From positions 1-36,409 of the forward strand of contig JAJVIA010000122.1 in NCBI GenBank assembly GCA_022072245.1: a stretch of DNA of 36,409 bases, in the 5' to 3' direction. The position numbers were made by a program, and so were the translations under genes. Numbering within the stretch: the stretch's first letter is position 1; each line of letters begins with the position of its first letter. This DNA is from Anaerolineae bacterium (lineage in GTDB: Bacteria; Chloroflexota; Anaerolineae; UBA4142; SHND01). The notes under the pieces are model-generated. The model saw nothing but the letters and a program-made list of their open reading frames with translations, was not told the DNA's origin and searched no databases. Shown in pieces: positions 4,752 through 31,581 of this stretch.

Positions 4752-5228
4752 TCACTCGTCATCCGCGCCGCGATGCTTGGACAATGCCGCAATATGCAGG
4801 CGCAGCGTTTCAACGCGCTCTAACGTCGCGCGCATCATTTGACGCAATAGTTTCGCGCCCAGCGCGCAATCCTGTTCCATCAACGCGCGCAGCGCCTCCG
4901 CGTCCAGTTCCAAAAAACGGCTCACCACCAACGCGCGCGCGCCGGTGCGATAGACATACGGCGCCAACAATGCCGAAACGCCGAACGGGTCGCCCGAATT
5001 GATTTCGCCCGCAAACAAGGGCGTCGGATTCGTCGCGCTGACGGTGGTGTACAAATCCACTTCGCCGTCAATCAAAAAATAGAGCGCGCTCGCCGCGTCC
5101 TGTTCTTGAAAAATAACCGTATTTTCCAACACGGACGTATCGCGCGCCAGCGCGGCGAGGCGTTCCAATTCGTCCGTCGCGAACGGCGCAAAAAACGGAT
5201 AGCGTTGTAACAAAGTAATGGATACCAT
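4752..5228 (-). CDS. Crp-like cyclic-nucleotide-binding domain protein without HTH
   Basis: This 158-residue protein is a single cNMP-binding beta-roll (about residues 5-120: ITLLQRYPFF, then LYFLIDGEVDLY) followed by a helical tail. There is no DNA-binding domain, so it is not a Crp/Fnr regulator as it stands. The phosphate-binding cassette is degenerate: where the family has FGE, this protein reads FGV (82-84), although an Arg follows at 94 (YRTGARA). Nucleotide binding is therefore doubtful or altered. The ATG at 5228 is chosen because upstream in-frame sequence looks non-coding and an AGAGG stretch lies about 9 nt before it. It is divergent from the CHAT-SIR2 operon, which also encodes a cyclase. 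A functional link is attractive but inferred. Confidence 0.8.
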   Translation of the reverse strand: MVSITLLQRYPFFAPFATDELERLAALARDTSVLENTVIFQEQDAASALYFLIDGEVDLYTTVSATNPTPLFAGEINSGDPFGVSALLAPYVYRTGARALVVSRFLELDAEALRALMEQDCALGAKLLRQMMRATLERVETLRLHIAALSKHRGADDE

Positions 5229-5300
5229 AGCGTGAGACCTCTGGCAAACGGATAGGCGTATTTTCGCGCGCCGCCGCTTGACGGCGCAAAACATGACACG

Positions 5301-5329
5301 ATGATAAACGCGATATGCAAGTACAACAA
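5301..5329 (-). promoter_or_regulatory. Possible promoter of the cNMP-domain gene
   Basis: On the minus strand TTGTTG (5324-5329) and TATCAT (5301-5306) are spaced by 17 nt. The -10 matches 5 of 6 consensus bases but the -35 only 3 of 6. The predicted start near 5294 leaves a leader of about 65 nt to the ATG at 5228. Confidence 0.35.
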
Positions 5330-5383
5330 GTTGACGCCGACCAAGCCCCAAAAAAACGCGTATCCCAAGACAAATATATGTAA

Positions 5384-5389
5384 TATAAT
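5384..5389 (+). promoter_or_regulatory. Consensus -10 box before the CHAT-SIR2 operon
   Basis: A perfect TATAAT hexamer lies 42 nt upstream of the ATG at 5432 in an AT-rich patch, but no good -35 hexamer is found 16-18 nt before it. This could mean an activator-dependent or alternative-sigma promoter, or chance. AGAGGG directly precedes the start codon and can act as the ribosome binding site. Confidence 0.4.
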
Positions 5390-5431
5390 AGCATCCGCAC
5401 TTTACGCTATCCCGTTACAAAAAGAGGGCGC

Positions 5432-7474
5432 ATGAGCGATTACGCCGATTTGGAATTGATCTTGACGCGGTGGGACAAAGAAAGCTATCGGGTTGAATTG
5501 CGTTACAGCCAACCGGGCAGCGAAGCCGATACGCGTCTCGACGCGCCCGCGACCGCGCGCCTGGATCGTGTCGCGCTGCGCGCATTGGAATTACAACCGG
5601 ACGCGTACGGCAAAGCGTTGGGCGCAAGTTTATTCGGCGACGCCCAAATCAAAACCATGTTCGCGCAAGCGCGCGCGAGCGCGCAAGCGCAAAATTTGGA
5701 TTTGCGTTTGCGGCTCAGCATTGACCCGACGGCAGCCGAGCTGCACGAGCTGCATTGGGAAACGCTGCGCGACCCCTCTGATAATTCTTCGCTCGTCACT
5801 TCCGAACGCATTTTATTTACGCGCTATCTCGCCGCGCAAGATTTTCGGCCCGTCAAAATCAAACCGCAAAAAGATTTGCGCGCGCTCGTCTTTATTTCCA
5901 ATCCAACCAATCTTGGCGATTTGGATGGCTTTGCGCCGATTGACGCGGCGGGCGAATTGGAACGCGCGCAAAAAGCGTTGGGCAATCTCACGGTCACGAC
6001 GCTGGCGCCGCATGAGTTTGCAACGCTCAATCGGCTCGTCGAAAAATTGCGCGACGACATTGACATTTTGTATCTCGTCGCGCACGGCGCGGCGGGCGCC
6101 GCGGAATCGGTTATTTTTTTGCAAGACGATACCGGCAAGCTGCACGATGTCGCCGCGTCGGCGCTCGTCACGCGCCTGAACGAATTGCAAGACCCGCCGC
6201 GGCTCGTCGTTCTCGCCGCGTGCCAAAGCGCCAACATGGCTGCCGCAACCGATAACGACCGCGCGCTCGCGTCGCTGGGACCCCGCCTCGCGTCCGCGGG
6301 CGTGCCGGCGGTGATTGCGATGCAAGGCAATATCACGATGCAAACGGTCGCGCAATTCATGCCCGTCTTTTTCCGAGAGTTGAGCCGCGACGGCCAAATT
6401 GACCGCGCGATGGCGGCGGCGCGCGCGGCGGTGCGCGACAACGCGGACGCGTGGATGCCCGTTTTATTTTTGCGGCTCAAGAACGGCAAAATTTGGTACG
6501 TCCCCGGTTTCGGCGGCGACAAAGCCGCGTTTCAAAAATGGCCCGCGCTGATGGCTGCCATTCGCAAAGGTCGCTGTACGCCGATTTTGGGGCCCGGCCT
6601 TTCGGAGAGCGTATTCGGTTCACGCAGCGCGCTCGCCGCGCGTTGGGCAAAAAAATACAGCTTTCCCCTCGCGCCCTATGCCGCCGAAGATTTGCCCGAA
6701 GTCGCGCAATATATCGCCGTTGACCAAGCGCGCTTTTTGGTGCATGACGAATTGGAACAGGCGCTGAAACAAGAATTGGAACGCCGCTTTGGTTTGCAGC
6801 TCGCGCCCGCGCTGCAAAACGCGCCCTTGACCGAGCTGGTTCATGCCGTCGGCGCGCTGACGCGTCAAAACGCGCACGACCCGTACGCGGTGTTGGCGCA
6901 TTTGCCCTTTCCGGTGTACATCACGACAAATCCCGACAGCTTGATCATTGACGCGCTGCAAGCGGCGGGCAAAGAGCCGCAGGTAGAATTGTGTCAGTGG
7001 AACGACAACATCACGACACAAGCGCTCGCGCAAACGGCGAGCTCTTTTGTGCCGGACGAAAAACATCCGCTCGTCTATTGCCTGTTCGGACAATACAGCG
7101 ACTCCGATTCGCAGGTCATCACCGAAGACGATTATTTTGATTATCTCATCGGCGTCACGTCCAATAAAGATTTGATTCATCACGAAGTGAAACGCATGTT
7201 GACCGATTCGGCGCTGCTGTTTCTCGGTTTTCAATTGGACGATTGGAATTTCCGCGTCTTGTATCGCAGCATCATGTCGCAAGAGGGCGGCAACCGCCGT
7301 AAAAATCTGCCGCACATTGCCGCGCAAATTGACCCCGCCGAGGGGCGGCTCATCGAACCCGAACGCGCGCGCAAATATCTGGAAAATTATTTCGGCAACG
7401 CCGACATTAGCATTTATTGGGGCAGCGCGGAGGATTTTATTAAAGATTTAGAAAAACAGGGGGGCAATCAATAA
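5432..7474 (+). CDS. CHAT caspase-like protease fused to a SIR2-like domain
   Basis: This 680-residue protein has three parts. Residues 1 to about 145 match the N-terminal region common in CHAT proteins. A CHAT (clan CD, caspase-like) protease domain spans about 150-355, with the expected dyad His218 (LYLVAHG) and Cys264 (VLAACQSA). A SIR2_2-like domain fills about 365-675, with the glycine-rich ILGPGLSES, Asn500 and Asp502 in ITTNPDSL, the TEDDYFDYL stretch, and FLGFQLDDWNFRVL. In the position where many sirtuin-fold NADases have His-Gly this protein has Phe552-Gly (CLFG), so NAD hydrolysis is uncertain. Its TAA overlaps the ATG of the STAND gene by one base, implying coupled translation and a likely complex. 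Known CHAT proteases can be switched by partner proteins. An effector role here is inference. Confidence 0.85.
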   Translation: MSDYADLELILTRWDKESYRVELRYSQPGSEADTRLDAPATARLDRVALRALELQPDAYGKALGASLFGDAQIKTMFAQARASAQAQNLDLRLRLSIDPTAAELHELHWETLRDPSDNSSLVTSERILFTRYLAAQDFRPVKIKPQKDLRALVFISNPTNLGDLDGFAPIDAAGELERAQKALGNLTVTTLAPHEFATLNRLVEKLRDDIDILYLVAHGAAGAAESVIFLQDDTGKLHDVAASALVTRLNELQDPPRLVVLAACQSANMAAATDNDRALASLGPRLASAGVPAVIAMQGNITMQTVAQFMPVFFRELSRDGQIDRAMAAARAAVRDNADAWMPVLFLRLKNGKIWYVPGFGGDKAAFQKWPALMAAIRKGRCTPILGPGLSESVFGSRSALAARWAKKYSFPLAPYAAEDLPEVAQYIAVDQARFLVHDELEQALKQELERRFGLQLAPALQNAPLTELVHAVGALTRQNAHDPYAVLAHLPFPVYITTNPDSLIIDALQAAGKEPQVELCQWNDNITTQALAQTASSFVPDEKHPLVYCLFGQYSDSDSQVITEDDYFDYLIGVTSNKDLIHHEVKRMLTDSALLFLGFQLDDWNFRVLYRSIMSQEGGNRRKNLPHIAAQIDPAEGRLIEPERARKYLENYFGNADISIYWGSAEDFIKDLEKQGGNQ

Positions 7475-10400
7475 TGTCCAACCCCCGCCCCAATCCGTAT
7501 GTCGGCCCGCGACCGTACCGGACCGGCGAAAAAATGTACGGCCGCGAACGCGAAACGCGCGAGCTGCTCAATCTCTTGATTGCCGAGCGCATCGTTTTGT
7601 TGTACTCGCCGTCCGGCGCTGGCAAAACGTCGCTCATTCAAGCCGCGCTCTTGCCGCAATTGCGCCAAGAAGAATTTGTCGTCTTGCCGCCGATGCGCGT
7701 CAATAGCGAACCGCCGACGGCGGACAAGAACGAAACGCTCGCGCAATTTAATCGCTATGTTCTTTCGACATTGCTTTCGCTCGAAGAGGGCCAACCGCGC
7801 GAAAAACGTTTGCCGCTCGCGCAATTGGCGCAAATGTCATTCGACGCTTATTTCAAACAGCGCGCCGATTTGCAAGACAAAAATCCCGTTTTACTCTTTG
7901 ACCAATTCGAAGAAATCCTCACGACCGCGCCGATGGAACGCGACGCCAAGTACGCGTTCTTTGAACAAATCGGCGCCGCGCTGCGCGACCGTTCGCGGTG
8001 GGCGCTCTTTTCGATGCGCGAAGATTACATCGCGGGCCTTGACCCGTTCATTCGTCCGCTGCCCACGCGTTTTTCCACGCGCTATCGTCTCGACTTGCTC
8101 GGCACGGACGCGGCGCGCGACGCGCTTCAAAAACCCGCCCGCGACGCGGGCGTGGATTTCACCCATGCCGCCGCCAACAAATTGATTGACGATTTGCGTC
8201 AGGTGCACATTCAACGCCCCGACGGCGCTATGGAAACTCAACTCGGTTTGTACGTCGAACCCGTGCAGCTCCAAGTGGTGTGCTTGCGCTTGTGGAATAA
8301 TTTGTCCGCCGACCAACGCGCCATCGCCGAGACCGATGTCGTCCAAGTCGGCGATGTCAACAGCGCGCTGGCGAGCTATTACGAAATGCGCGTCGCCGCC
8401 GCGTCCGTCGCCACCGGCGAAACGGAACGCGCCATCCGCGAATGGTTCGACCGTCAGCTCATTACCGATGCCGGCGTGCGCGGCCAGGTGTTGATGGAAC
8501 CCGAACGCAGTCGCGGCTTGGCGAATCGGACGATTCGACTGTTGGAGGACGCGCATCTCGTGCGCGCGGATGAACGGCGCGGCGCGACTTGGTTCGAGCT
8601 CGCGCACGACCGCTTGATTGAACCGCTTCGCGACAACAACCGCGTCTGGTTTGAAAAAAATCTGAGCGCGTTCCAACAACAAGCGGATTTGTGGGAACGG
8701 CAGGGCCGCCCCGACGGTCTATTGCTGCGCGGCAAGGCGTGGGACGAAGGGTACCTGTGGGCGCAGCAGCACGCGCAAACTTTGACGCCGGTCGAACAAG
8801 CTTTTTTCAAAGAGAGCGACCAAGAAGATTTTCGTCTCAAAAAAGAGCGCCGCACGCAGCGCCGCATTCGCAATCTCGCGTTTGGCGCGACGGCGTTGAG
8901 CGTGATTGCGATTCTCGGCATTGTCGTCGCGTTGATTTCGCTCGCGCAATTGGGCAGCTCGCTGCAAGAAACCGACCAGGCGCGCGCCGAAGCGCTTGCC
9001 AAAGGCGATGAAGCCAATGCCGCGCGCTTGCAGGCGCAGCAGCAAGAACGCGTTTCCAAAATGACCGGCGCGGCGCTGTCGCAATTGAACGTGGACCCCG
9101 AAACGAGTTTGCTGTTGGCGATGCAGGCGTACAGCATTACGCAGACGACGCAGACCGACGACATTTTGCGTCAGGCGGTCACGGAATCGCGCGTGCGCGG
9201 AACCTTGCGCGGACACACCGATAGCGTGGATGCCGTGGCGGTGAGTCCCGACGGAAAATTTTTTGCCACCGCTTCGGGCGACGGCTCGGCGATTCTTTGG
9301 GATGCGACGAACGGCAAACCAACGCGCGTTCTCAAGGGTCACACCGCGCCGGTGTGGGGCGTCGTGTTCAGCCCTGACGGCAAAACTTTGTTGACGACCA
9401 GCGCGGACAAGACCGCGCGGTTGTGGGATTTGACTCACTGCAGCGGCGAGACCTGTCCCGCGCGCGAAATAACGGGACATACGGCGGCGGTGTGGAATGG
9501 CGCGTTCACTCCCGACGGCAAAGCGTTCGCCACCGTCAGCCAAGACGGCACGGCAAAACTTTGGGAAACCGCCAGCGGAAATTTTTTGGGCGACGTGGGT
9601 TCGCACACGCAAGACATCAACGGCATCGCCTTTAGCCCGGACGGCAGATTTTTTGCGACCGTAAGTTCGGACCGAACCGCGCAAGTGACCGATATCACCC
9701 AATGCGCCTACGACAAATGTACGTTTCAACCGTTTGAGACGCAAGCCGCCTTGTGGAGCGTCGCGTTCAGTCCCGACAGCAAAGCCATTGTGGTTGCGAG
9801 CGACGACCAGAACGCGTACAAAATCAATCTCGCAACCAACAGCATCGAAAATCAATTGAGCGGACACAGCGATTCCGTGTTGAGCGTCGCCTACAGTCCC
9901 GACGGCAAATATATTGCGACGGGCAGCCGCGATGGGACGGCGCGCCTTTGGGATGCCGCCACGGGCCAAGAGATTGCGATTTTGCGCGGTCACGACAATT
10001 CCGTGTGGAGCGTCGCGTTCACGCCCGACAGTCATTTATTGTTGACCGGCAGCGCGGACACTACCGCGCGGCTCTGGGATATTTCCGACAATGACGCGCT
10101 GCGCGTGTTGCGCGGCGCCTTGAACAAAATTTTGGGCGCCGCATACAGCGGCGACGGCGCGCGCGTCATTTCCGTCGGCGCAGACAGCAGCGCGCGCGTG
10201 TGGGATGTGGCGACCAATACCCTGCTTGCCAAACTCGAGGGACACAACGGTTGGGTTAGCGACGGCGCGTTAACTCGCGATGGCTCTCGCGCCGCCACCG
10301 CCAGCTTTGACGATACCGCGCGCATTTGGGATTTGAAACATTGCGCGCCCGCGTGTCCCTTTATCGAACTCAAGGGTCACGAAGCCATCGTACGCAGCAT

Positions 10401-11688
10401 CGCGTTCAGCCCCGACGAAAAATTTGTTTTGACCGCGAGCGAAGACAAGACCGCGCGGTTGTGGGACGCAACCACCGGCGCGTTGGTCAAAATCTTTACG
10501 GGGTCCTACAGCCCGTTGAATCATGCGTCATTCAATCACGACGGAACGCTCATCGTCACGGCAGGCAATGACCGCAACGCCATTCTCTGGGATGTGGCGA
10601 CCGGCGCGCCCACATTGACCTTGAGCGGCCACACGGGCGCGGTGAACAGCGCCGCCTTTAATGCCGACGGTACGCTGGTCGTCACGGCGAGCGATGACCG
10701 CACCGCGCGGATTTGGGATATTGTCCATTGCGCGCCAAACAGCCCTTGCCCGTTCAAAGAATTAAGAGGACATCTCGGCGCGGTGACAAGCGCAGCGTTC
10801 ACCCACGACGGCAAAAATATCGTCACCAGCAGCGCGGACCAGACCGTGCGCGTGTGGGACATAAATACGCTGCAAACGCTCAGCATCTTGCGCGGTCACA
10901 CCGACAAAGTGCAAACGGTCGCATTGAGTCCCGACGACCGATTTGTCTTGACCGCAAGCTCCGACAAAACGGTTCGCATCGTACCGCTTGCAATACATCA
11001 AGTTCTGGAACTCGCGCGTTTACGCGTAACGCGCGCGCTGTCGTGCGACGAATGGGCGCTCAACGTAGGCGACCCGAATTATTGTCCGGGCGGCGGCGTC
11101 ACGCAAAACGCCCATGCCTTGCCGACGCTTGCGCCCATCACGCGCGTCGCCGCCGCGCCAACCGAAAGCGCGCCGCCGACGCTTGCGCCAGCCACCCTTC
11201 CGCCCGCGACCGCGCAACCGACGCCGTTGCCCAATGCGCCAACCGCGACTGCGACGGCAACCGGCGAGGCGCCGCAACCGAGTCCCACCCTGCCGCTAGT
11301 GGCGACGGCGCCGCCCGCGACGCCAACGCCCGCCCTCGCGCCCGGCGTCTATATTTCGCAGCTCGTCTATCAACCGCTGGACGCGCCCAATTTTCAATTC
11401 CGCGTCACATTTCTCAATACCACCGGCGCGCCGGTCACGTATGCCAATTGGCGCGTGCCGTTTTATGAACCCGGCGCAAAAAATTCTATCGGCGCGCCCA
11501 AAGGCGTTGATAAAACGATTCCGGTTGGCGACGCTACCTTGCTGACCGAAACGTGGAAAGTGGGCGTCGGACAATGCACCGCTTACACGGCGAAACCGGT
11601 CTATGAAGATGGCGCGGGCCGTCAAACGCCGTTTAGTTTTACGGACGGACAACCCGCGACGCTTGATTTTCAAATTTGTCCGCCCTGA
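7474..11688 (+). CDS. nSTAND NTPase with membrane helix, 14 WD40 repeats and C-terminal Cys-paired domain
   Basis: This 1404-residue protein begins with a STAND-type NTPase. The P-loop is SPSGAGKT with Lys51, and Walker B is LLFDQFEE with Asp143 and Glu146/147, followed by a winged-helix-like region to about 460. A basic stretch (KKERRTQRRIR) precedes one hydrophobic helix at about 468-493, so positive-inside places the NTPase in the cytoplasm and the rest outside. A short coiled coil follows, then 14 WD40 units (about 575-1172), enough for two seven-bladed propellers. Next come a Thr/Pro/Ala-rich linker (about 1209-1289) and a 115-residue C-terminal domain shared with the next gene. Several blades carry Cys pairs in loops. 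It starts on the stop codon of the CHAT-SIR2 gene. Likely role: a ligand-sensing switch controlling the protease partner. The ligand is unknown. Confidence 0.88.
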   Translation: MSNPRPNPYVGPRPYRTGEKMYGRERETRELLNLLIAERIVLLYSPSGAGKTSLIQAALLPQLRQEEFVVLPPMRVNSEPPTADKNETLAQFNRYVLSTLLSLEEGQPREKRLPLAQLAQMSFDAYFKQRADLQDKNPVLLFDQFEEILTTAPMERDAKYAFFEQIGAALRDRSRWALFSMREDYIAGLDPFIRPLPTRFSTRYRLDLLGTDAARDALQKPARDAGVDFTHAAANKLIDDLRQVHIQRPDGAMETQLGLYVEPVQLQVVCLRLWNNLSADQRAIAETDVVQVGDVNSALASYYEMRVAAASVATGETERAIREWFDRQLITDAGVRGQVLMEPERSRGLANRTIRLLEDAHLVRADERRGATWFELAHDRLIEPLRDNNRVWFEKNLSAFQQQADLWERQGRPDGLLLRGKAWDEGYLWAQQHAQTLTPVEQAFFKESDQEDFRLKKERRTQRRIRNLAFGATALSVIAILGIVVALISLAQLGSSLQETDQARAEALAKGDEANAARLQAQQQERVSKMTGAALSQLNVDPETSLLLAMQAYSITQTTQTDDILRQAVTESRVRGTLRGHTDSVDAVAVSPDGKFFATASGDGSAILWDATNGKPTRVLKGHTAPVWGVVFSPDGKTLLTTSADKTARLWDLTHCSGETCPAREITGHTAAVWNGAFTPDGKAFATVSQDGTAKLWETASGNFLGDVGSHTQDINGIAFSPDGRFFATVSSDRTAQVTDITQCAYDKCTFQPFETQAALWSVAFSPDSKAIVVASDDQNAYKINLATNSIENQLSGHSDSVLSVAYSPDGKYIATGSRDGTARLWDAATGQEIAILRGHDNSVWSVAFTPDSHLLLTGSADTTARLWDISDNDALRVLRGALNKILGAAYSGDGARVISVGADSSARVWDVATNTLLAKLEGHNGWVSDGALTRDGSRAATASFDDTARIWDLKHCAPACPFIELKGHEAIVRSIAFSPDEKFVLTASEDKTARLWDATTGALVKIFTGSYSPLNHASFNHDGTLIVTAGNDRNAILWDVATGAPTLTLSGHTGAVNSAAFNADGTLVVTASDDRTARIWDIVHCAPNSPCPFKELRGHLGAVTSAAFTHDGKNIVTSSADQTVRVWDINTLQTLSILRGHTDKVQTVALSPDDRFVLTASSDKTVRIVPLAIHQVLELARLRVTRALSCDEWALNVGDPNYCPGGGVTQNAHALPTLAPITRVAAAPTESAPPTLAPATLPPATAQPTPLPNAPTATATATGEAPQPSPTLPLVATAPPATPTPALAPGVYISQLVYQPLDAPNFQFRVTFLNTTGAPVTYANWRVPFYEPGAKNSIGAPKGVDKTIPVGDATLLTETWKVGVGQCTAYTAKPVYEDGAGRQTPFSFTDGQPATLDFQICPP
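9199..10990 (+). repeat. 14 WD40 repeat units inside the STAND gene
   Basis: Fourteen units of about 40 codons each carry the pattern GH..V.sVAfSPDG...atas.D.tarlWD. Most show the terminal WD or a close variant. The units are diverged in DNA sequence, so this is an old array rather than a recent expansion. Blades 3, 5, 10 and 13 are preceded by loops with two cysteines 3-5 residues apart (for example HCSGETC and QCAYDKC). Confidence 0.9.
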
Positions 11689-11731
11689 GTTTGCATCAGA
11701 AAAAATTTTGCGCCGCCGCGCGACATTCAAC

Positions 11732-11757
11732 CGCGTCGAAAAAAAATTTTTGACGCG
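11732..11757. other. Intercistronic stem-loop before the lipoprotein gene
   Basis: CGCGTC (11732-11737) and GACGCG (11752-11757) can pair, extended inward by A5 against T5 with one bulged G. This gives an 11-bp stem with a 3-nt loop in the 88-nt gap after the STAND gene. No T run follows, so it is more likely an RNA processing or stability element, or chance, than a terminator. Confidence 0.3.
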
Positions 11758-11776
11758 TCCTTGCGAATTTACATTC

Positions 11777-12463
11777 ATGAAACAACTCGGCGTCCTATTG
11801 ACTCTAATCCTTTGCGCCAGCGCGTGCAGCGCGCCCGCCAATCCCACCGCGCCGCCTCAAGCCACTGTCGCGCCTTCCGCCGCCGCGCCCGCGTTCCGCA
11901 CCGAAATTCCGGTCGTGAATACGCGCACCGACCGCATCGCGCCGACTCTGGCGCCGACCCAACCGCCCACCGAAATTCCCACCGTCGCGCCTACTTTCAC
12001 CACAACGCTGCCGCCGACAATCGCGCCGACCATCGCGCCGACCACCGCGCCAACTCTTGCGCCAACCATCGCGTCTGCGTCGCCGACGACATCCGCGCGC
12101 GCGCCGGGGGTGTATGTGACGGATTTGAAAATCAATCCGCCGCAGCCCAAAAACAAACCCGCCGAATTTTTCTTTACCGTCGCCTTTTTGAACACCGTCG
12201 GCGCGAACGTCAATTATCCGCGCTGGCGCGTTTTGATTTTTCCCAAAGGACAAAACAATACCATCGGCGACCCGGAAGGTTTGAGTAAAACGATTCTTGA
12301 CGGCGCGTCCACCCAAGATACCAAATCTTGGACCATTCGCGTCGCCAGCGTCTGCGAAACGTTTGTCGCGCAGCCGATTTGGCAAGATGAAAACGGCGGT
12401 CGTCACACGCTCACGCAGCCCGACGGCGCCCCATTGACATTGGAATTTCAAATTTGCCCATGA
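11777..12463 (+). CDS. Putative lipoprotein with the C-terminal domain of the STAND protein
   Basis: This 228-residue protein starts with a short hydrophobic signal ending in ASAC, a tolerable lipobox with Cys17 as the lipidated residue. A Thr/Pro/Ala-rich linker runs from about 18 to 108. The C-terminal domain (about 109-228) closely parallels the last 115 residues of the upstream STAND-WD40 protein. Shared landmarks are APGVY, FLNT.GA, WRV, a KTI segment, a Cys before the A.P motif, and a terminal FQICP. The conserved Cys pair suggests a disulfide outside the membrane. I do not recognise the domain's family; an Ig-like beta sandwich is plausible. The gene lies 88 nt after the STAND gene and its stop overlaps the next start (ATGA). 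It may compete or pair with the STAND C-terminus on the cell surface, which is inference. Confidence 0.8.
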   Translation: MKQLGVLLTLILCASACSAPANPTAPPQATVAPSAAAPAFRTEIPVVNTRTDRIAPTLAPTQPPTEIPTVAPTFTTTLPPTIAPTIAPTTAPTLAPTIASASPTTSARAPGVYVTDLKINPPQPKNKPAEFFFTVAFLNTVGANVNYPRWRVLIFPKGQNNTIGDPEGLSKTILDGASTQDTKSWTIRVASVCETFVAQPIWQDENGGRHTLTQPDGAPLTLEFQICP

Positions 12464-14103
12464 GCGAGCCCTTGCTGTATTTCAATGGCGTCAATGCGAG
12501 TCGCGGCGGGTATCTCACGCCGCCGATGCCCGCGCCCGCGCTAGCTCAGATCGCGCGCGGCGATGCCATCAGCGCGGAAAAACTCGCCGAGGCGAAATGG
12601 CGGCTCGAACAAAAAAAATCTCATCTCGGCGTCAAGGCGGGCGTGGACCCGACCAAAATCGAACAAGCGGGCTGGGGCGTCATTTTCGCGCGCGATGAAA
12701 AACCGGCGGTGCGCGACGCGCTGCGCGAATTATTGGACTATCGCCAAACGCAAGCGAATCAAATCAAGGAACGCTATCGCGAGTATTGGGGCGACGACGG
12801 GTATCGTCCGCACGAAAGCAAAAATGATTTTATCGCGCGGCATGGCGCGGGCGTTGGCGCGGTGGACCCGGATAAAATCCCGTACTATTTGCTTCTCGTC
12901 GGCGACCCCGAAAAAATTCCGTACCATTTTCAATATCAACTCGACGTCGCGTACGCCGTCGGACGCATTTATTTTGATACCGTCAAAGAATACGCGCAGT
13001 ACGCGCAGAGCGTCGTGCGCGCGGAAAAAGGGTTCGTCACGCGCGGCAAACGCGCGGTCTTGTTCGGGCCCGTCAATCCCGACGATGCCAGCACGCAAGC
13101 CAGCGCGCGCAATCTCACCGCGCCGCTTGCCGATACGCTGCGCGCCCAAGCGCCGGATTGGACGTTCGATTCCGTTCTCGCCGAACGCGCCACCAAAAAT
13201 CGTTTGGAAGAAACTTTACGCGACGACGCCCCCGCGTTTTTATTCACCGCCTCGCACGGCGCGGGTTTTGATTTGGGCGAACCGCGTCAAATGAAACATC
13301 AAGGCGCGCTCGTCACGCAAGAATGGGGCGGTCCCGTGGCGATGCAGAATCAACCCGTGCCGCAAACCATGTATTATGCGATGGACGATGTGCCGGGCGA
13401 CGCGCGTCTGCACGGTTTGATTTCTTTTCACTTTGCCTGTTTCGGCGCCGGCACGCCGCGTTATGACGAATTCGCGCATTTACGGCAAGGCGTCAGGGGC
13501 AATCTGGAAGCGATTCCAATCGCGCCCGCGTCATTCGTCGCGCGCTTGCCGCAGCAATTGTTGGCGCACCCAAAAGGCGGCGCGCTCGCGGTGATTGGAC
13601 ATGTGGATCGCGCGTGGGGTTCGTCCTTTTTATGGCAGCAAAACGTTTCGCAACTCGGCACATTTGAAAGCATGTTGACGCGATTGTTCGAGGGCTATCC
13701 CGTCGGCGCGGCGATGGAATATTTTAACGAACGTTATGCCGAACTCGCGGCGGCGCTCGCGGGCGATTTGGAAAATTTAAAAAAGCCGTACTTGAAAGTG
13801 GACGTCAATGCGTTTGCGACCTTGTGGACGGCGCACAATGACGCGCGCGGTTACGCCGTTATCGGCGACCCCGCCGTGCGTTTGCAGTCCAAACCCGGCG
13901 TCGCCGCGGCGCCGCAAACGGAATCTATTGCGCTGCGTACAGAAATATCGAACGCGGATCAAGTCCAAACAACAGCGACAACCGAATCTGCAATGAGCGT
14001 TGCAGAATTGGAAACGACGATTGCAAATTTGGAACGACAAATCGCCGCGCTCACAGCCCAAGTTATCAAATTACGCGCGGCGCTTGAAACCAAACAAACG
14101 TGA
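12460..14103 (+). CDS. Gingipain (C25)-like clan CD cysteine protease
   Basis: This 547-residue protein has the layout of C25-like peptidases. The strand motif YYLLLVGDPEKIP (142-154) precedes DVAYAVGRIYF (162-172). The catalytic His266 is in FTASHGAGF and the likely nucleophile Cys327 is in SFHFACFGAG. A late HVDRAWG motif also fits. The C-terminus (about 515-547) is a predicted coiled coil (ELETTIANLERQI onward), suited to oligomerisation or docking. No signal peptide is present, so it is probably cytoplasmic, unlike secreted gingipains. Its ATG lies inside the lipoprotein stop (ATGA, 12460-12463) and no ribosome binding site is visible, so translation should be coupled. It is the second caspase-fold protease in the run, after the CHAT protein. 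Target specificity cannot be read from sequence. Confidence 0.8.
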   Translation: MSEPLLYFNGVNASRGGYLTPPMPAPALAQIARGDAISAEKLAEAKWRLEQKKSHLGVKAGVDPTKIEQAGWGVIFARDEKPAVRDALRELLDYRQTQANQIKERYREYWGDDGYRPHESKNDFIARHGAGVGAVDPDKIPYYLLLVGDPEKIPYHFQYQLDVAYAVGRIYFDTVKEYAQYAQSVVRAEKGFVTRGKRAVLFGPVNPDDASTQASARNLTAPLADTLRAQAPDWTFDSVLAERATKNRLEETLRDDAPAFLFTASHGAGFDLGEPRQMKHQGALVTQEWGGPVAMQNQPVPQTMYYAMDDVPGDARLHGLISFHFACFGAGTPRYDEFAHLRQGVRGNLEAIPIAPASFVARLPQQLLAHPKGGALAVIGHVDRAWGSSFLWQQNVSQLGTFESMLTRLFEGYPVGAAMEYFNERYAELAAALAGDLENLKKPYLKVDVNAFATLWTAHNDARGYAVIGDPAVRLQSKPGVAAAPQTESIALRTEISNADQVQTTATTESAMSVAELETTIANLERQIAALTAQVIKLRAALETKQT

Positions 14104-14181
14104 CGCGCGCCGCCGTCACATTCACACGACAAAGGGCGGCGAATTTCATTGCGCCAAATTTGTCGCCTCAAGGAGGCAGCT

Positions 14182-14502
14182 ATGAGCCACACAATTCTCG
14201 TGTTCGTGAACGTGAGCCGTCAAGACGCGTTCATCTATTTCAATACGTCAGAGGGCAACACGTTACTCGCCGGCAAACTTGCGGCGGGCGAAAGCGCGCG
14301 GCAGATCGCGCGCGCGGGCGAAAAATGGAGCGTCACCGCCGGCGATACCTACACGCTGACGGTAGGCGACCAAAATCGCGCCTATCTCATCGGCAGCGGC
14401 GGCGTCTATGAAGTGGACAAGCCGCGCGCGCTGACGCCCGACGGCGGCGGCGCAACCAATGATTTTGATTTTCCCAGCTTTGGCGGGGGACCCTGGCCGT
14501 AG
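14182..14502 (+). CDS. Small VHL-beta-domain-like protein
   Basis: This 106-residue protein has a strong ribosome binding site (AAGGAGG, 6 nt before the ATG). Residues 3 to about 75 resemble the beta domain of the von Hippel-Lindau protein: an opening strand ILVFVNVS followed by FIYFNT, then LAAGES, then GEKWSV and a Thr-rich strand. The match is by eye and moderate. The last 25 residues are disordered-looking and Gly/Asp/Phe-rich (PDGGGATNDFDFPSFGG, ending PWP), a possible docking or cleavage tail. It has no signal peptide or cysteines. It sits 78 nt after the C25-like protease and 2 nt before the cyclase gene. A binding adaptor or protease substrate role is inference. Otherwise it is a hypothetical small protein. 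Confidence 0.72.
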   Translation: MSHTILVFVNVSRQDAFIYFNTSEGNTLLAGKLAAGESARQIARAGEKWSVTAGDTYTLTVGDQNRAYLIGSGGVYEVDKPRALTPDGGGATNDFDFPSFGGGPWP

Positions 14503-14504
14503 AC

Positions 14505-17500
14505 ATGAGCGCGCTGCCGCCCTATCTTGCCCAAGACCGCCGCCGCGCGCTGGCGCGCAACGAATCGCTCCCGGACCGCGCCGACGGCGCGGTCTTGTTT
14601 GCGGACATTTCCGGTTTTACGCCGTTAACGGAAGCGTTCACGCGCAGCTTGGGCGCGCGGCGCGGCGCCGAAGAATTGACGCGTCAACTTAACGCCGTGT
14701 ACGACGCGCTGATTGTCGAAATCGAAAATTTCGACGGCAGCGTCATCAATTTCGCGGGCGATGCGGCTTTGTGTTGGTTTGCGGAAAATTCTGCGGGAGA
14801 ACCGCGCGCGGCGCTGCGCGCCACGGCGTGCGCGTTTGCCTTGCAGCGCGCGATGCAGCAATTTTCAGCCGTGCCGTTACCGGACAATCTCACGGTTCCA
14901 ATCGCCATCAAGATCGCCATCGCCTATGGCGCGGTCCGCCGTTTTGTCGTCGGCGACCCCAACATTCGCGTCCTGGATGTTATCGCGGGCGCCCCGGTCA
15001 CGCGCAGCGGCATCGCCGAACATCTCACGCAGCGCGGCGAAATCGCGCTGGATGAGCCAACCGTCCAAGCGCTCGGCGCGCAAATTGAAATTCAAGCATG
15101 GCGCAATGCGACGGACACAGACGCGCGTTTCGCCATCGCGCGCGCGCTGCTTTCGCGCGTTCCCCCAACGCCCCCCGCCGCTTTTCCGCCGCTTGCCGAC
15201 TCGCAAGTCAAACCGTGGCTTTTCGACGCGGTGTACAAACGCTTGGCTGCCAAAGGCGAAATCTTTTTGACCGAACTGCGGCCCGTCGTCGCGCTCTTTG
15301 GGCGCTTTCAAGGCATTGATTTTGAAACGGATGAAACGGCGGACGAAAAATTAAATCTATTTATTTCGCGCGTGCAGCAAATTCTCGACCGCTATGGCGG
15401 CGCGCTCTTGGAACTCACCATCGGCGACAAGGGCAGCTATTTTTATGCCGCGTTCGGCGCGCCGCAGATTCACGAAGATGACGCGCGCCGCGCAGTGTTT
15501 GCAGCGCGCGAACTCTTTCCGTTATGCGTCGAACTCGGTTTTTTGGAACCGCTGCAAGTGGGCATCAGTCAAGGCGTCATGCGCGTCGGCGCGTACGGCG
15601 GCCGCACGCGCCGCATCTATGGCGCGCAAGGCGACGAGGTAAATCTCGCCGCGCGACTCATGACCGAAGCGAAACCCGGGACGCTGTTGGTGAGCGGACA
15701 CATTCAAAAAAATGTCGCCAATGAATTCGATTTAGAGCCGCTGCCGCCCATTCACTTGAAAGGCAAGGCAGAGCCGCTGCCGCCGTTTCTTGTCGTCGGC
15801 GTGCGCGAGACGCGCGTCAAGCAATTGCAAGAAGCGTACTATACCTTGCCGATGATTGGGCGCGAGGCGGAACTCGCGTTGATTCTAACCAAAATCGAAT
15901 TGGCGCGGCGCGGCCAAGGTCAAATCATTGCGCTCAGCGCGCCCGCCGGGGTTGGCAAATCGCGCATGACCGCCGAAATCATTCGGCTCATGCGGCGGCG
16001 GCGCGAAACGAGTTACGGCGGCGAATGTCAATCGTTCGGCGTCAACATTCCTTATCTGGTCTGGGGCCCAATTCTGCGCGCGTTTTTTGGCATAGACACG
16101 AATCTGCCTACGCGCCGTCAGATTCGCGCATTGGAAAATGAAATCGCCGCGCTGGCGCCGCGGCGTTTCGAGGCGCTGCCCTTGTTGAGCGCGCTGGTGG
16201 ATCTGCCGATTCCCGAAAATGATTTTACGCGCGCGCTCGAACCGGAATTTCGAAAAACAGTTTTGCACGCTTTGCTGCGCGATTGCTTTTCGGCTGCGGC
16301 GGATGAAGCGCGCGCGCAAGGGCAGGCGCTTTTATTTGTGCTGGAAGATATTCATTGGATTGACCCCGCTTCGCTTGAATTGCTGCAAGAGCTGGCGACG
16401 GGAATTGAAAAATTGCCGATTGTGATATTGCTAAATTATCGCCCCTCCGAAACGGACGCGCATTTTTTGCCCCAACTCGATACGCTCGCTTTTTTTACGC
16501 GTCTCGCGCTCAATGAATTGACCGACGCGCAAGGCGCGGATTTGATTCGCGCAAAATTGGCGCAGCACGCGCCCGAAAGCGGCCAAGCGACGCCGCCCGC
16601 GTTGATTGAACGCGTGAACGCCCAAGCGCAAGGCAATCCGTTTTATATCGAACAATTGTTGGATTACATTCACGACCGCGATTTGGATTTCCGCAATCCG
16701 CAGCAGGCGAGCGCATTCGAACTGCCCAATACGCTGCATCGTCTCGTGTTGACCCGTCTCGAACGCTTGAGCCAAGCGCAGCGCCTCGCGTTAAAAGCCG
16801 CCAGCGTCATTGGACGCTGGTTCAGTTTCGCGCATCTGTGCGGCTATTTCCCCGCGCTCGGTTCGCCCGAACAGACGCGCGCCGAGTTGACCTTGACGCT
16901 GCGCTCCGACCTCATTGCGCTAGACCATCCCGACCCCGACCTCACGTATGTTTTCAAACACGTCGTGACGCACCAAGTCGCTTACGAGGCGTTAACCTTT
17001 GCTACGCGCGCCCAACTCCATGAAGCGTACGCGCAATTTTTGGAACGCCATAACGAACCCGAACGCACGCTCGATTTGCTGGCATATCATTACGACCGCA
17101 GCAAGAACAAGGCGAAACGACTTGAATACCTGACGCGCGCGGGCCAAGCCGCGGCGGCGCGTTTTGCCAACACGGAAGCGGTGAATTATTTGACGCGCGC
17201 GTTGGCGCTGACGACCGACGCGCAGCGCGCCGAGCGTTTCAAGCTGTTGGACGCGCGCGCGCGCGTATTTGAAGTGCAAGGCGCGCGCGACGCGCAGCGC
17301 GCCGACCTCGACGCGTTGGAACGCCTCGCGCAAGAGCTTGACGACCCGTTCAAATATCTGAGCGTCCTGTTGGAACAGGGGTGGCTGGCGGAACGGCTTG
17401 CCGAACACGAAACGGCGCGCGCGCTAATTCGCCGCGTCCAAGAGGGCTTGACGCAGCGCGCGCTCGGCGCGGACGCGCGCGCGCATCTGGAAATCGAAGT

Positions 17501-18659
17501 TCTCTTGCTCGAAGGCGCAGTATTGTGGCAGCAAGGCGCCGCCGCCGCCGCGCGGCCCATTATGGCACGCGCATTGGCTCACGCCAACGCGCGCGCCGAC
17601 GACGCTGAACAAGCGCGCGCGCGCGGTTTCTTGGCCCAAGTCTTGAACGAGCTGGGCGAATATGACGCGGCGCAAACAAATTACGAGCAACTTTTAGAGT
17701 ACGCCCGCGCGCGCCAAGACAAACGCCGCGAATGGTCGGCGCTCACGACATTGGGTTTAATCGCAACCGAGCGCGGCGATTTTGACTTGGGCCTCGCGCA
17801 CTATACGGCGAGTTTGGATATTGTCCGCGCCATCGGCGACCGACAGGGCGAAGGACTCGTCCTCTCCAATATCGCGCAAGCGCAGCTCGAACAGGGCGCG
17901 TATGACCGCGCGCTCGAATTGGGCTTGCAAGCGCGCGCCATTGCGAACGCCATTAACGACCGGCGCGGCGTGTGTCGAATCGAGCTCAATCTGGGCGAAA
18001 CCTATCGCTTGCTCGGACAATATGACAACGCGGAAGCGCACACCGCCGACGCGCAGCGCCGCGCCAATGAATTGGAGGATTGGCTTTACCAAGTCGGCGC
18101 GATGGTCAATCACGCCGCCATTCAATTGGACCGCCAAGCGTTTGCGCGCGCGCAAGCATCCGCTGTCGAGTGCGTCGCGCGCGCGCGCGCCATACATCAC
18201 CGCGCCTTGACCGGCTTTGCGTATAATCTGTTGGCGCAAACGCAGCTCGCGTTGGACAAACTCGGCGCCGCGCAAGAATCTTGTACGCAAGCGTTAGCGA
18301 GCTGGCAGACGCTCGAATCATCGCCTTATCGTCTGCAAACGCACGCCTGTTTGGCTGAAATCGCGCGGCGGCAAAATGATTTCGCGCGCGCGCAAAACGA
18401 GTGTGCGGCGATTTTTGAATTTCTCTACGCGCACCCGAATCGTCAAGGCGCTCCGTCGGCGCTTGCCGCGCTGCTGGCTTGCTATCAAGTCGCGCGCGCA
18501 AGACACGACGCCAACGCGTCCGCGCTATTGGACAAAGCGTACGCGCAATTGCAAGCGCGCGCCGAAAAAATTTCGGACGCGGCGCTGCGTCAATGTTTTC
18601 TCGAAAATGTACCGACCAATGCAGAAATTACGCGCCTCTGGCGCGCGCAGTTATCCTGA
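14505..18659 (+). CDS. Soluble adenylyl cyclase-like protein: two class III cyclase domains, AAA/STAND ATPase, TPRs
   Basis: This 1384-residue protein has the domain order of mammalian soluble adenylyl cyclase. Cyclase domain 1 (about 25-200) holds both metal aspartates, Asp34 in FADISGF and Asp86 in NFAGDAA. Domain 2 (about 258-430) lacks the first metal Asp (LFGRFQG) but keeps the transition-state pair Asn380 and Arg384 in VNLAARL. One composite active site making cAMP or cGMP is therefore expected. An AAA_16/STAND ATPase follows (P-loop APAGVGKS with Lys485, Walker B LLFVLEDIHW near 610), then TPR-like helical repeats from about 860 to the end. Asn82 sits where a purine-contacting Lys is common, so substrate choice is unclear. 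It starts 2 nt after the small VHL-like gene and no regulator domain is attached. Coupling to the protease run is inferred from context. Confidence 0.88.
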   Translation: MSALPPYLAQDRRRALARNESLPDRADGAVLFADISGFTPLTEAFTRSLGARRGAEELTRQLNAVYDALIVEIENFDGSVINFAGDAALCWFAENSAGEPRAALRATACAFALQRAMQQFSAVPLPDNLTVPIAIKIAIAYGAVRRFVVGDPNIRVLDVIAGAPVTRSGIAEHLTQRGEIALDEPTVQALGAQIEIQAWRNATDTDARFAIARALLSRVPPTPPAAFPPLADSQVKPWLFDAVYKRLAAKGEIFLTELRPVVALFGRFQGIDFETDETADEKLNLFISRVQQILDRYGGALLELTIGDKGSYFYAAFGAPQIHEDDARRAVFAARELFPLCVELGFLEPLQVGISQGVMRVGAYGGRTRRIYGAQGDEVNLAARLMTEAKPGTLLVSGHIQKNVANEFDLEPLPPIHLKGKAEPLPPFLVVGVRETRVKQLQEAYYTLPMIGREAELALILTKIELARRGQGQIIALSAPAGVGKSRMTAEIIRLMRRRRETSYGGECQSFGVNIPYLVWGPILRAFFGIDTNLPTRRQIRALENEIAALAPRRFEALPLLSALVDLPIPENDFTRALEPEFRKTVLHALLRDCFSAAADEARAQGQALLFVLEDIHWIDPASLELLQELATGIEKLPIVILLNYRPSETDAHFLPQLDTLAFFTRLALNELTDAQGADLIRAKLAQHAPESGQATPPALIERVNAQAQGNPFYIEQLLDYIHDRDLDFRNPQQASAFELPNTLHRLVLTRLERLSQAQRLALKAASVIGRWFSFAHLCGYFPALGSPEQTRAELTLTLRSDLIALDHPDPDLTYVFKHVVTHQVAYEALTFATRAQLHEAYAQFLERHNEPERTLDLLAYHYDRSKNKAKRLEYLTRAGQAAAARFANTEAVNYLTRALALTTDAQRAERFKLLDARARVFEVQGARDAQRADLDALERLAQELDDPFKYLSVLLEQGWLAERLAEHETARALIRRVQEGLTQRALGADARAHLEIEVLLLEGAVLWQQGAAAAARPIMARALAHANARADDAEQARARGFLAQVLNELGEYDAAQTNYEQLLEYARARQDKRREWSALTTLGLIATERGDFDLGLAHYTASLDIVRAIGDRQGEGLVLSNIAQAQLEQGAYDRALELGLQARAIANAINDRRGVCRIELNLGETYRLLGQYDNAEAHTADAQRRANELEDWLYQVGAMVNHAAIQLDRQAFARAQASAVECVARARAIHHRALTGFAYNLLAQTQLALDKLGAAQESCTQALASWQTLESSPYRLQTHACLAEIARRQNDFARAQNECAAIFEFLYAHPNRQGAPSALAALLACYQVARARHDANASALLDKAYAQLQARAEKISDAALRQCFLENVPTNAEITRLWRAQLS

Positions 18660-31495: not shown

Positions 31496-31506
31496 ACCAT
31501 CTCCCA

Positions 31507-31536
31507 TTTATACTAACGCGGAGCAGAGAAATACAA
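31507..31536 (-). promoter_or_regulatory. Possible promoter of the large LysM gene
   Basis: On the minus strand TTGTAT (31531-31536) and TATAAA (31507-31512) are spaced by 18 nt. The leader to the ATG at 31495 would be only about 5-12 nt. The -35 overlaps the edge of the hairpin at 31536-31570. Confidence 0.4.
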
Positions 31537-31570
31537 ACGCGCCAGCTGTCAGAGCAACAGCTGGCGCGTT
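31536..31570. terminator. 14-bp hairpin between the two LysM genes
   Basis: AACGCGCCAGCTGT (31536-31549) and ACAGCTGGCGCGTT (31557-31570) form a perfect 14-bp stem with a 7-nt loop, just beyond the stop of the minus-strand gene ending at 31582. On that strand the trailing sequence TGTATTTC is only moderately T-rich. On the plus strand a better T run follows after 5 nt. It most likely ends the LysM-YbaY transcript. Confidence 0.7.
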
Positions 31571-31581
31571 GCTTGATTTTT

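What the first reader, a model, noticed from the sequence alone, without database searches (positions are those of the whole stretch)
4752..18659. Candidate multi-protein surveillance system: CHAT-SIR2, STAND-WD40, shared-domain lipoprotein, C25-like protease, VHL-like protein and sAC-like cyclase
The sequence shows six consecutive same-strand genes with overlapping or tight junctions (TAATG at 7472-7476, ATGA at 12460-12463, a 2-nt gap at 14502-14505; the two other gaps are 88 and 78 nt). They combine two caspase-fold proteases, a sirtuin-like module, two STAND/AAA switches and a nucleotide cyclase, and sit divergent from a cNMP-domain protein. CHAT, STAND and SIR2 modules are known from bacterial conflict and regulated-death systems. 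I do not recall this exact set described together. A role in defence, cell death or envelope signalling is inference.
Basis: partly seen in the sequence, partly recalled or inferred. Interest (0 to 1): 0.85.

Follow-up and report, generated by a model that had tools for sequence, protein, structure and literature searches.

The report
Membrane-spanning STAND receptor paired with protease
This locus encodes a conserved bacterial pair, a membrane-spanning switch protein whose sensing half probably faces outside the cell and a caspase-like protease it probably controls, together with a second caspase-fold protease, which looks like an outside-sensing relative of the animal apoptosome whose function is not yet tested.

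Summary
The six genes are real and tightly packed. g1 orthologues occur in 5 of 6 genus genomes, with the same gene order wherever contigs allow. The wider conserved unit is smaller: CHAT-SIR2 followed by nSTAND1-TM, usually with WD40. Of 39 CHAT-SIR2 genes, 37 have nSTAND1 downstream on the same strand (32 within 200 bp); the other two sit at contig ends. The pair is co-inherited (r 0.91); the C25-like protease is a frequent but exchangeable third gene. CHAT His and Cys are kept in 41 of 41. The SIR2 catalytic His is replaced in all 39 aligned (37 F, 1 M, 1 L), so the sirtuin module is probably a dead scaffold; three unfused relatives beside nSTAND1 keep it. Charge bias around the helix, and surface-type domains beyond it in some relatives, suggest that the sensor half is outside. 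Best reading: ligand outside, STAND assembly inside, CHAT (then C25) proteolysis, probably cell death or defence; activation and output are inference. Flanking genes gave no clear defence signal, and no CHAT-fused form was recovered from the phage, viral-contig and plasmid searches (partly read). New variant of a known kind.

The parts
5432..7474 (+). g1: CHAT protease domain (His218, Cys264 intact) fused to SIR2-like domain whose catalytic His is Phe552
   Evidence: Pfam; residue columns; AlphaFold model, Foldseek matches to KomC/ThsA/DSR2 and Csx29
7474..11688 (+). g2: nSTAND1 NTPase (Walker A near residue 47, Walker B near 139), TM segment about residues 472-490, WD40 repeats, T/P-rich linker, C-terminal domain X
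   Evidence: Pfam; hydropathy; residue positions
8887..8943 (+). predicted transmembrane segment of g2 between nSTAND1 and the WD40 part
   Evidence: hydropathy 2.65, position; R/K before exceed those after in 36 of 38 nSTAND1 proteins
11777..12463 (+). g3: putative lipoprotein, T/P-rich linker, domain X as in g2
   Evidence: blastp between g2 and g3 homologues; alignment; lipobox-like signals in four genomes
12460..14103 (+). g4: C25 (gingipain)-like cysteine protease, His266/Cys327, long C-terminal helix, no hydrophobic segment
   Evidence: Pfam; hydropathy; model; fold matches; dyad
14182..14502 (+). g5: 106-aa orphan, conserved between g4 and g6 in 5 genus genomes
   Evidence: tblastn; no family
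14505..18659 (+). g6: two class III cyclase stretches, AAA_16, TPR (soluble adenylyl cyclase-like layout), genus-level partner
   Evidence: Pfam; orthologues at the same place in G002, G004, G005 and, cut by a contig end, G003
4752..5228 (-). divergent cNMP-binding protein; same place also in G003; not part of the conserved unit
   Evidence: Pfam; neighbourhoods; start inferred from the 158-aa homologue and Met positions

Best explanation
A two-gene receptor-protease module with an exchangeable third component. nSTAND1 sits in the cytoplasm and is tied by one TM helix to an outward-facing part, usually WD40 propellers (here also domain X, shared with lipoprotein g3 as a likely outer partner). 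A ligand or surface change outside (inferred) releases the NTP-driven STAND switch, which assembles a platform inside (inferred from STAND biology). The platform gathers the CHAT-SIR2 protein; its SIR2 part no longer has the NADase His and probably works as assembly or docking domain, while the intact CHAT protease is the output. In this genus CHAT probably acts with, or activates, the gingipain-like protease g4 (inferred). The result is probably regulated self-damage or defence, with the cyclase as a local add-on. Shown here: gene pairing, co-inheritance, intact protease dyads, lost SIR2 His, TM and charge pattern. Not shown: ligand, activation, substrates, phenotype.
For: nSTAND1 follows CHAT-SIR2 on the same strand in 37 of 39, the other 2 having 52 and 2 bases of contig left; 32 of 37 gaps are under 200 bp, the largest is 1097 bp; 34 of 37 have a TM after nSTAND1. 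Of the 17 CHAT-SIR2 genes read from the SIR2-only search, 16 of 16 testable. Two more, from the phylum of an Acidobacterium genome, carry CHAT-SIR2, nSTAND1-TM and C25 in a row. Distance matrices of CHAT-SIR2 and nSTAND1 correlate, r 0.91, 0 of 2000 permutations. CHAT and nSTAND1 (weak profile matches) lie on one polypeptide near C25 in 17 of 74 loci, 14 on the same strand, mostly cyanobacterial. CHAT dyad 41 of 41; C25 Cys 89 of 90, His 89 of 89 aligned; SIR2 His 0 of 39 aligned. The same SIR2 column is H in 9v0g and A in the mutant 9v12. R/K before the TM exceed those after in 36 of 38. PPC domains lie beyond the TM in L179, a relative without CHAT; FG-GAP proteins are the next gene in four tested loci.
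Against: Topology rests on a hydropathy scan and charge bias, not on a trained predictor or experiment. L115 has TPR repeats beyond the TM (below the Pfam cut-offs), which fits a cytosolic side as well. The nSTAND1-C25 fusion L050 has no TM and has lost the C25 Cys. C25 tracks the pair only weakly (r 0.38; -0.03 below 60% identity), so a fixed CHAT-to-C25 cascade is not general. L179 has a SIR2 without His and no CHAT gene in view. Shared ancestry may give part of the pair correlation. Defence tests are indirect and without clear result.
Confidence: 0.55

Rival explanations
1. Regulatory proteolysis rather than death: the pair is a membrane receptor that on an envelope or developmental signal makes CHAT cut a specific regulator, as the cyanobacterial CHAT protease HetF is recalled to do; cyclase and cNMP protein fit signalling.
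For: g1 gives a weak HetF match (E 1.1e-4); cyclase g6 kept in the genus; no clear defence signal in flanks or mobile elements.
Against: The HetF score is far below its cut-off (20.7 against 1200 bits); patchy occurrence, SIR2-profile matches in 17 of 400 phylum genomes, is unlike a core developmental switch; the third component differs between loci.
Confidence: 0.25
2. Antiphage abortive-infection system: the sensor detects phage or infection damage and the proteases kill the cell.
For: CHAT and SIR2 parts match PADLOC models (SAVED_CHAT 2.8e-6, ThsA 1.3e-13); STAND and CHAT proteins are described as conflict or defence parts (PMC10907252 and PMC8195603, passages); patchy distribution. Flanking ORFs matched more PADLOC models than control ORFs, 87 against 11, many of them methyltransferase models that a single ORF can match.
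Against: An outward-facing sensor would not see intracellular phage products; no PADLOC model covers the set; no PADLOC model was matched by more than 1 of 79 flanking ORFs; no match in phages, one weak CHAT-part match in viral contigs.
Confidence: 0.25
3. Cytosolic system: the hydrophobic segment only anchors the complex and the WD40 part lies inside, as in Apaf-1.
For: Apaf-1, the best known WD40-STAND protein, senses cytochrome c with its WD40 part (PMC7159879, passage), a cytosolic event; weak TPR matches beyond the TM in L115.
Against: R/K bias before the TM in 36 of 38; PPC domains in L179; T/P-rich linker plus domain X shared with a putative lipoprotein.
Confidence: 0.15
4. The window genes are unrelated neighbours that merely lie on one strand.
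For: g3 and g5 were found only in the genus, g6 at full length only there; AAA and acetolactate decarboxylase-fold genes are inserted before g4 in G002 and G005.
Against: Pairing 37 of 37 testable; CHAT within 8 kb of C25 in 24 of 38 loci with 5 kb on both sides, about 4-8% expected; gene fusions.
Confidence: 0.03

Closest known systems
Apaf-1 apoptosome (WD40-sensing STAND that activates caspases)
   Same: STAND NTPase with C-terminal WD40 propellers next to caspase-fold proteases
   Different: nSTAND1 clade, a TM helix between switch and propellers, separate CHAT-SIR2 gene, no CARD hit; bacterial
STAND/caspase conflict systems and EACC1 two-gene systems (Kaur et al. 2020 PMC7159879; 2021 PMC8195603; passages only)
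   Same: caspase-superfamily peptidase, STAND switch, membrane link, swapped parts; caspase with alpha/beta-hydrolase pairs recall the cyanobacterial loci here
   Different: no EAD or EACC1 among the Pfam hits; the constant pair is CHAT-SIR2 with nSTAND1-TM; term counts in the main texts gave no gingipain in either, no CHAT, VHL or SIR2 in the 2020 paper and no C25 in the 2021 paper; the CHAT count of 3 in the 2021 paper fell on author names
STAND proteins with diversified sensors in Thiohalocapsa (PMC10907252; passages only)
   Same: nSTAND1 or NACHT switches with variable sensors; one STAND sensor already predicted to be periplasmic; a CHAT-TIR protein
   Different: lectin-type sensors made by diversity-generating retroelements; no CHAT-SIR2 pair, SIR2 and C25 counts zero
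Metacaspases with NACHT, WD40 or outside receptors (PMC3501461; passages only)
   Same: caspase fold with STAND and WD40; a metacaspase with an outward CHASE2 receptor was proposed
   Different: C14 metacaspases on one chain; no CHAT-SIR2 or C25 in the passages
ThsA, KomC and DSR2 SIR2 NADases
   Same: SIR2 fold (best Foldseek E 5.5e-12)
   Different: catalytic His replaced in all 39 aligned CHAT-fused members
Csx29 (TPR-CHAT) and SAVED-CHAT
   Same: CHAT fold (Csx29, SAVED-CHAT by sequence) with His/Cys kept
   Different: no SAVED or TPR part in g1; control by nSTAND1 is inferred
Gingipains (peptidase family C25)
   Same: fold over model residues 47-479, Z 23.6-25.2; His/Cys dyad
   Different: no signal peptide-like segment in g4, 13-15% identity, sits with CHAT/STAND genes
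SIR2 plus nSTAND1 pairs in Ensifer adhaerens plasmid pB and Nonomuraea gerenzanensis
   Same: adjacent SIR2 and nSTAND1 genes, homologous domains
   Different: no CHAT fusion, catalytic His and Asn kept

Membership tests
STAND-caspase conflict systems (Kaur et al.) | STAND NTPase switch with Walker motifs | tested here: met
   nSTAND1 4.7e-32; Walker A and B positions
STAND-caspase conflict systems (Kaur et al.) | caspase-superfamily peptidase with intact dyad | tested here: met
   CHAT His/Cys 41 of 41; models; activity not assayed
STAND-caspase conflict systems (Kaur et al.) | effector-associated/death-like adaptor domains joining the parts | tested here: inconclusive
   no such family among the Pfam hits shown for the six genes (25 of 69 shown for g2); divergent adaptors could be missed
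EACC1 two-gene system | 5' gene encoding EACC1, 3' gene with caspase plus variable domain | tested here: not met
   5' gene is CHAT-SIR2, 3' gene nSTAND1-TM-WD40
SIR2 NADase effector (ThsA/DSR2/KomC) | SIR2 fold | tested here: met
SIR2 NADase effector (ThsA/DSR2/KomC) | catalytic His of the HG motif | tested here: not met
   F552 in the window; 0 of 39 aligned CHAT-fused members keep His
Peptidase family C25 | gingipain catalytic fold and His/Cys dyad | tested here: met
   Pfam 3.2e-9, over cut-off; Z up to 25.2; Cys 89 of 90, His 89 of 89 aligned
Peptidase family C25 | secreted protease with signal peptide | tested here: not met
   no hydrophobic segment in g4 by a simple hydropathy scan
Soluble adenylyl cyclase-like proteins | two class III cyclase domains, AAA, TPR | tested here: met
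   activity not tested
VHL beta domain | profile match | tested here: inconclusive
   no Pfam VHL hit, no solved relative; no model of g5 was made
Antiphage defence system | phage protection | not testable with these tools
   indirect tests gave no clear result

The most novel reading that the evidence does not exclude
An envelope-spanning bacterial apoptosome: the sensor propeller faces outside, the STAND ring forms on the inner face, and the effector has been handed over in evolution from an NADase to a protease. SIR2 plus nSTAND1 was the older pair (His kept in L132, Ensifer and Nonomuraea); once CHAT joined, SIR2 lost its catalysis and stayed as the assembly link between switch and protease, while third parts (C25 protease, alpha/beta-hydrolase, surface FG-GAP protein) are swapped.
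Probability: 0.35. Interest if true: 0.82.

Novelty: new variant of a known kind. Interest (0 to 1): 0.66.

Why it matters
Most known bacterial STAND immune receptors sense inside the cell (recalled), although a periplasmic STAND sensor has been predicted before (PMC10907252, passage). A conserved STAND-protease pair with its sensor apparently outside would be a bacterial outside-in counterpart of death receptors and apoptosomes. The fixed loss of the SIR2 catalytic residue in CHAT-fused proteins gives a clear, testable case of an enzyme turned into a scaffold, and warns against annotating every SIR2 domain as an NADase.

Tried and rejected
VHL for g5: no support. NADase output from g1: rejected on the catalytic column. 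Fixed CHAT-to-C25 cascade in all members: not supported (20 loci, r 0.38 with 1 of 2000 permutations as high, but -0.03 below 60% identity). Defence islands: 79 flanking ORFs of 200-1000 aa from 14 loci gave 87 PADLOC models (25 listed, many methyltransferase, also DrmMII, DruM, DruE), none matched by more than 1 ORF; the listing does not say how many ORFs that is. 79 control ORFs (the first 79 of 120 drawn from 141) gave 11 models, at most 2 ORFs each. More models in the test set could favour defence; without ORF counts I call it inconclusive. Faster sensor evolution: mixed. WD40 identity to the window is 79/51/44/74% against nSTAND1 82/71/62/71% in G003/G002/G004/G005. 'SIR2 keeps His only without CHAT': L132, L196, L197 and the distant L181 (no nSTAND1 seen) fit; L136 and L179 are unfused and have lost it; the branch that groups L132 with CHAT-fused members has support 0.49. 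More His-keeping pairs: one search gave only places already seen (400 genomes); two new loci in 247 genomes, both CHAT-fused; only the centre itself in 378; none in 376, with no positive control.

Rows dropped: 7 loci that duplicate genomes already held (L059, L060, L061, L093, L097, L105, L128). Of 23 places, 20 stretches were fetched; the G137 fragment was not. ORFs were called by a simple longest-ORF script, and antisense ORFs may stand in some listings. In one search six of 80 loci lost the C25 ORF to overlapping ORFs; one search repeated the pick with profile hits first (80 of 80). One search reports no TM for L172, but it looked near the first of two nSTAND pieces; searches show one. Broken or split genes (CHAT and SIR2 apart in L175, stop inside in L180, end of SIR2 not in frame in L138, nSTAND and WD40 apart in L092) were only described. 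Five short plasmid matches and two further places in the Nonomuraea record were not read. One search failed at its drawing step after the residue listing; one search used FastTree instead.
Full report
What is there. The six genes lie as described. Pfam gives CHAT and SIR2_2 in g1, nSTAND1 and WD40 in g2, Peptidase_C25 in g4, two cyclase stretches with AAA_16 and TPR in g6, cNMP_binding in the divergent gene, and nothing over a cut-off for g3 and g5. PADLOC gives only partial matches to single parts. g3 shares its C-terminal domain X with the end of g2 and has a lipobox-like signal in the four genomes where it was found.

Conservation in the genus. Among the 6 genus genomes searched, g1 orthologues occur in 5 (G000, G002-G005); G001 gave only CHAT-level matches. 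In G002-G004 the order g1, g2, g4, g6 is kept on one contig; in G003 the contig ends inside g6. G005 is spread over contigs: g1 is cut at the end of one, and another starts inside g2 and runs on through g3, g4 and g6. g3 was not found in G002. g5 is found between g4 and g6 in all five (tblastn). Inserts occur: an AAA protein with hydrophobic segments plus an acetolactate decarboxylase-fold gene before g4 in G002 and G005, and a DUF4258 gene after g1 in G002.

The conserved core. A scan of genome contigs with the C25 alignment kept 80 of 146 loci. With profile-first ORF picking all 80 show the C25 gene; within 8 kb there is CHAT in 44, nSTAND1 in 25, SIR2 in 18. Domain X and g5 profiles matched only genus loci (4 and 3 of 80); the g6 profile matched 7, of which L089, L096 and L110, outside the genus, only in part. 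Of 38 loci with 5 kb on both sides, 24 have CHAT. In the 29 genomes behind 32 of the loci I counted 471 CHAT matches in 193.8 Mb (my sum over the table), which predicts 4% per locus, or 8% at the density of one CHAT-rich genome (48 in 9.8 Mb); 24 of 38 has a binomial P under 1e-16. Related loci are not independent and the two CHAT profiles differ, so the P is only a guide. In 17 of 74 loci, 16 of them cyanobacterial by record title, CHAT and weak nSTAND1 matches lie on one polypeptide near C25, on the same strand in 14. A probable alpha/beta-hydrolase gene (Pfam below cut-off) often stands directly before C25 in cyanobacterial loci; its profile is met near C25 in 23 of 80.

A search by SIR2 similarity alone matched 17 of 400 phylum genomes, 23 places. 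Of 20 stretches fetched, 17 hold a CHAT-SIR2 gene; L175 has CHAT and SIR2 in separate ORFs before nSTAND1, L179 SIR2 without CHAT before nSTAND1, and L181, a weak match, no nSTAND1. Over all distinct CHAT-SIR2 genes collected (39), nSTAND1 follows on the same strand in 37, within 200 bp in 32 and at most 1097 bp away; the other two have 52 and 2 bases of contig left. The 17 from the SIR2-only search give 16 of 16 testable. Two more, from the phylum of the Acidobacterium genome G484, have CHAT-SIR2, nSTAND1-TM and C25 in a row. Identity matrices of CHAT-SIR2 and nSTAND1 correlate (37 loci, r 0.91, 0 of 2000 permutations; 0.87 for pairs under 60% identity). Those of CHAT-SIR2 and C25 correlate weakly (20 loci, r 0.38, 1 of 2000; -0.03 under 60%). 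Shared ancestry alone can give part of the first value. So the pair is constant and C25 is exchangeable. C25 is the very next gene after nSTAND1 in 8 of the 37. In 9 loci of one family (f57) the next gene is a 1427-2031-aa protein with an N-terminal hydrophobic segment; the four tested with Pfam (L162, L167, L174, L176) have FG-GAP repeats, three of them also a P_proprotein domain. L164 has an alpha/beta-hydrolase there.

Protease parts. CHAT His218 and Cys264 are kept in 41 of 41. C25 His is kept in 89 of 89 aligned (1 gap) and Cys in 89 of 90; the exception is the nSTAND1-C25 fusion L050. The g4 model (pLDDT 88.6) matches gingipains best (Foldseek; Z 25.2, rmsd 3.3, 309 residues). The g1 model (pLDDT 82.7) matches KomC, ThsA, DSR2 and Csx29.

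SIR2 part. The HG-motif His is F in 37, M in 1, L in 1 of 39 aligned CHAT-fused proteins, with 2 gaps; the Asn of the TTN motif is kept in 30 of 41. HMMER places the column on the His of ThsA and of 9v0g ('FHG'), which is Ala in the mutant complex 9v12 ('FAG'); that chain has the Asn changed too. Of the 45 domains, His is kept in L132, L196 and L197, all unfused and beside nSTAND1; L136 and L179, also unfused, and L175, split from CHAT, have lost it. Ensifer pB (L196) and Nonomuraea (L197) have SIR2 directly before nSTAND1. I infer an older SIR2-nSTAND1 pair in which CHAT took over as effector; the tree is too weakly supported to prove the order.

Topology. A hydrophobic segment follows nSTAND1 in 34 of 37 pairs; of the other three, L087 is cut by a contig end, L092 has its WD40 part in a separate ORF, and L050 is the C25 fusion. 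In 38 nSTAND1 proteins R/K before the segment exceed those after in 36, equal in 1, fewer in 1. Of 15 homologues scanned with Pfam, 12 have WD40 beyond it; L179 has PPC domains, L115 weak TPR matches, L165 nothing recognised. With the T/P-rich linker and domain X shared with g3, an outside position is the better reading, not a proof.

Function. A ligand-gated STAND platform that activates CHAT is inferred from the families. Defence, death or developmental proteolysis cannot be told apart. The flank test is inconclusive: 87 PADLOC models against 11 in the control, without ORF counts. Phages gave no match to the SIR2 part, viral contigs one weak match to part of CHAT, plasmids 7 records, of which the two long matches were read and have no CHAT.

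Literature. The held library was searched with 'CHAT-SIR2', 'SIR2-CHAT', 'CHAT and SIR2' (no hits for these three; the 11 papers listed hold 'CHAT protease'), 'nSTAND1' (2 papers), and mixed terms. I saw passages, not whole papers, of PMC7159879, PMC8195603, PMC10907252, PMC3501461 and PMC13174449. None of these passages describes this pair, but two give precedents for outside sensing: a predicted periplasmic STAND sensor and a metacaspase with an outward receptor. Subscription papers and supplements were not seen.

Noticed in passing
L058:864-7525 (G000:C120) and L057 (G003:C115): A second locus in the own genome: two C14 caspase genes followed by a distant C25-like gene and two genes without Pfam family; G003 has a similar C25-like gene in a comparable run.
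   Followed up: partly
e.g. L063:11965-12774, L106:11953-12693, L092:11974-12852: A family of about 270 aa, many with a hydrophobic segment near the C-terminus, directly downstream of C25: 18 of the 52 downstream neighbours listed; no Pfam family for the three tested.
   Followed up: partly
L065:8575-9954 and relatives: A family of about 440-500 aa with a GHSFG motif (probable alpha/beta-hydrolase, Pfam below cut-off) directly before C25 in cyanobacterial loci; a patatin gene follows C25 in L129.
   Followed up: partly
L196:8908-13886 (Ensifer adhaerens pB) and L197:8911-11834 (Nonomuraea gerenzanensis): SIR2 plus nSTAND1 pairs, unannotated in the PLSDB table, with the catalytic His kept, one on a plasmid typed as conjugative: a possible NADase STAND pair.
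   Followed up: partly
L043:7622-10071 and L046:4726-7034: AAA ATPase with hydrophobic segments next to an alpha-acetolactate decarboxylase-fold gene, inserted into the locus in two genomes.
   Followed up: no
L178:162-20000 (G334:C20): A second CHAT/nSTAND-like pair shortly before the CHAT-SIR2/nSTAND1 pair, followed by a DEAD-box protein and a C25-containing gene.
   Followed up: no
window 29504-33105 (-): Two neighbouring secreted-looking proteins that both start with a LysM-like stretch (recalled motif, read).
   Followed up: no
g4 model m66c398e91358 against 8rot/8rw5: The g4 model also resembles the transmembrane anti-sigma factor DdvA (Z 12.6 and 12.2), a hint of caspase-fold domains in other membrane signalling proteins.
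   Followed up: no
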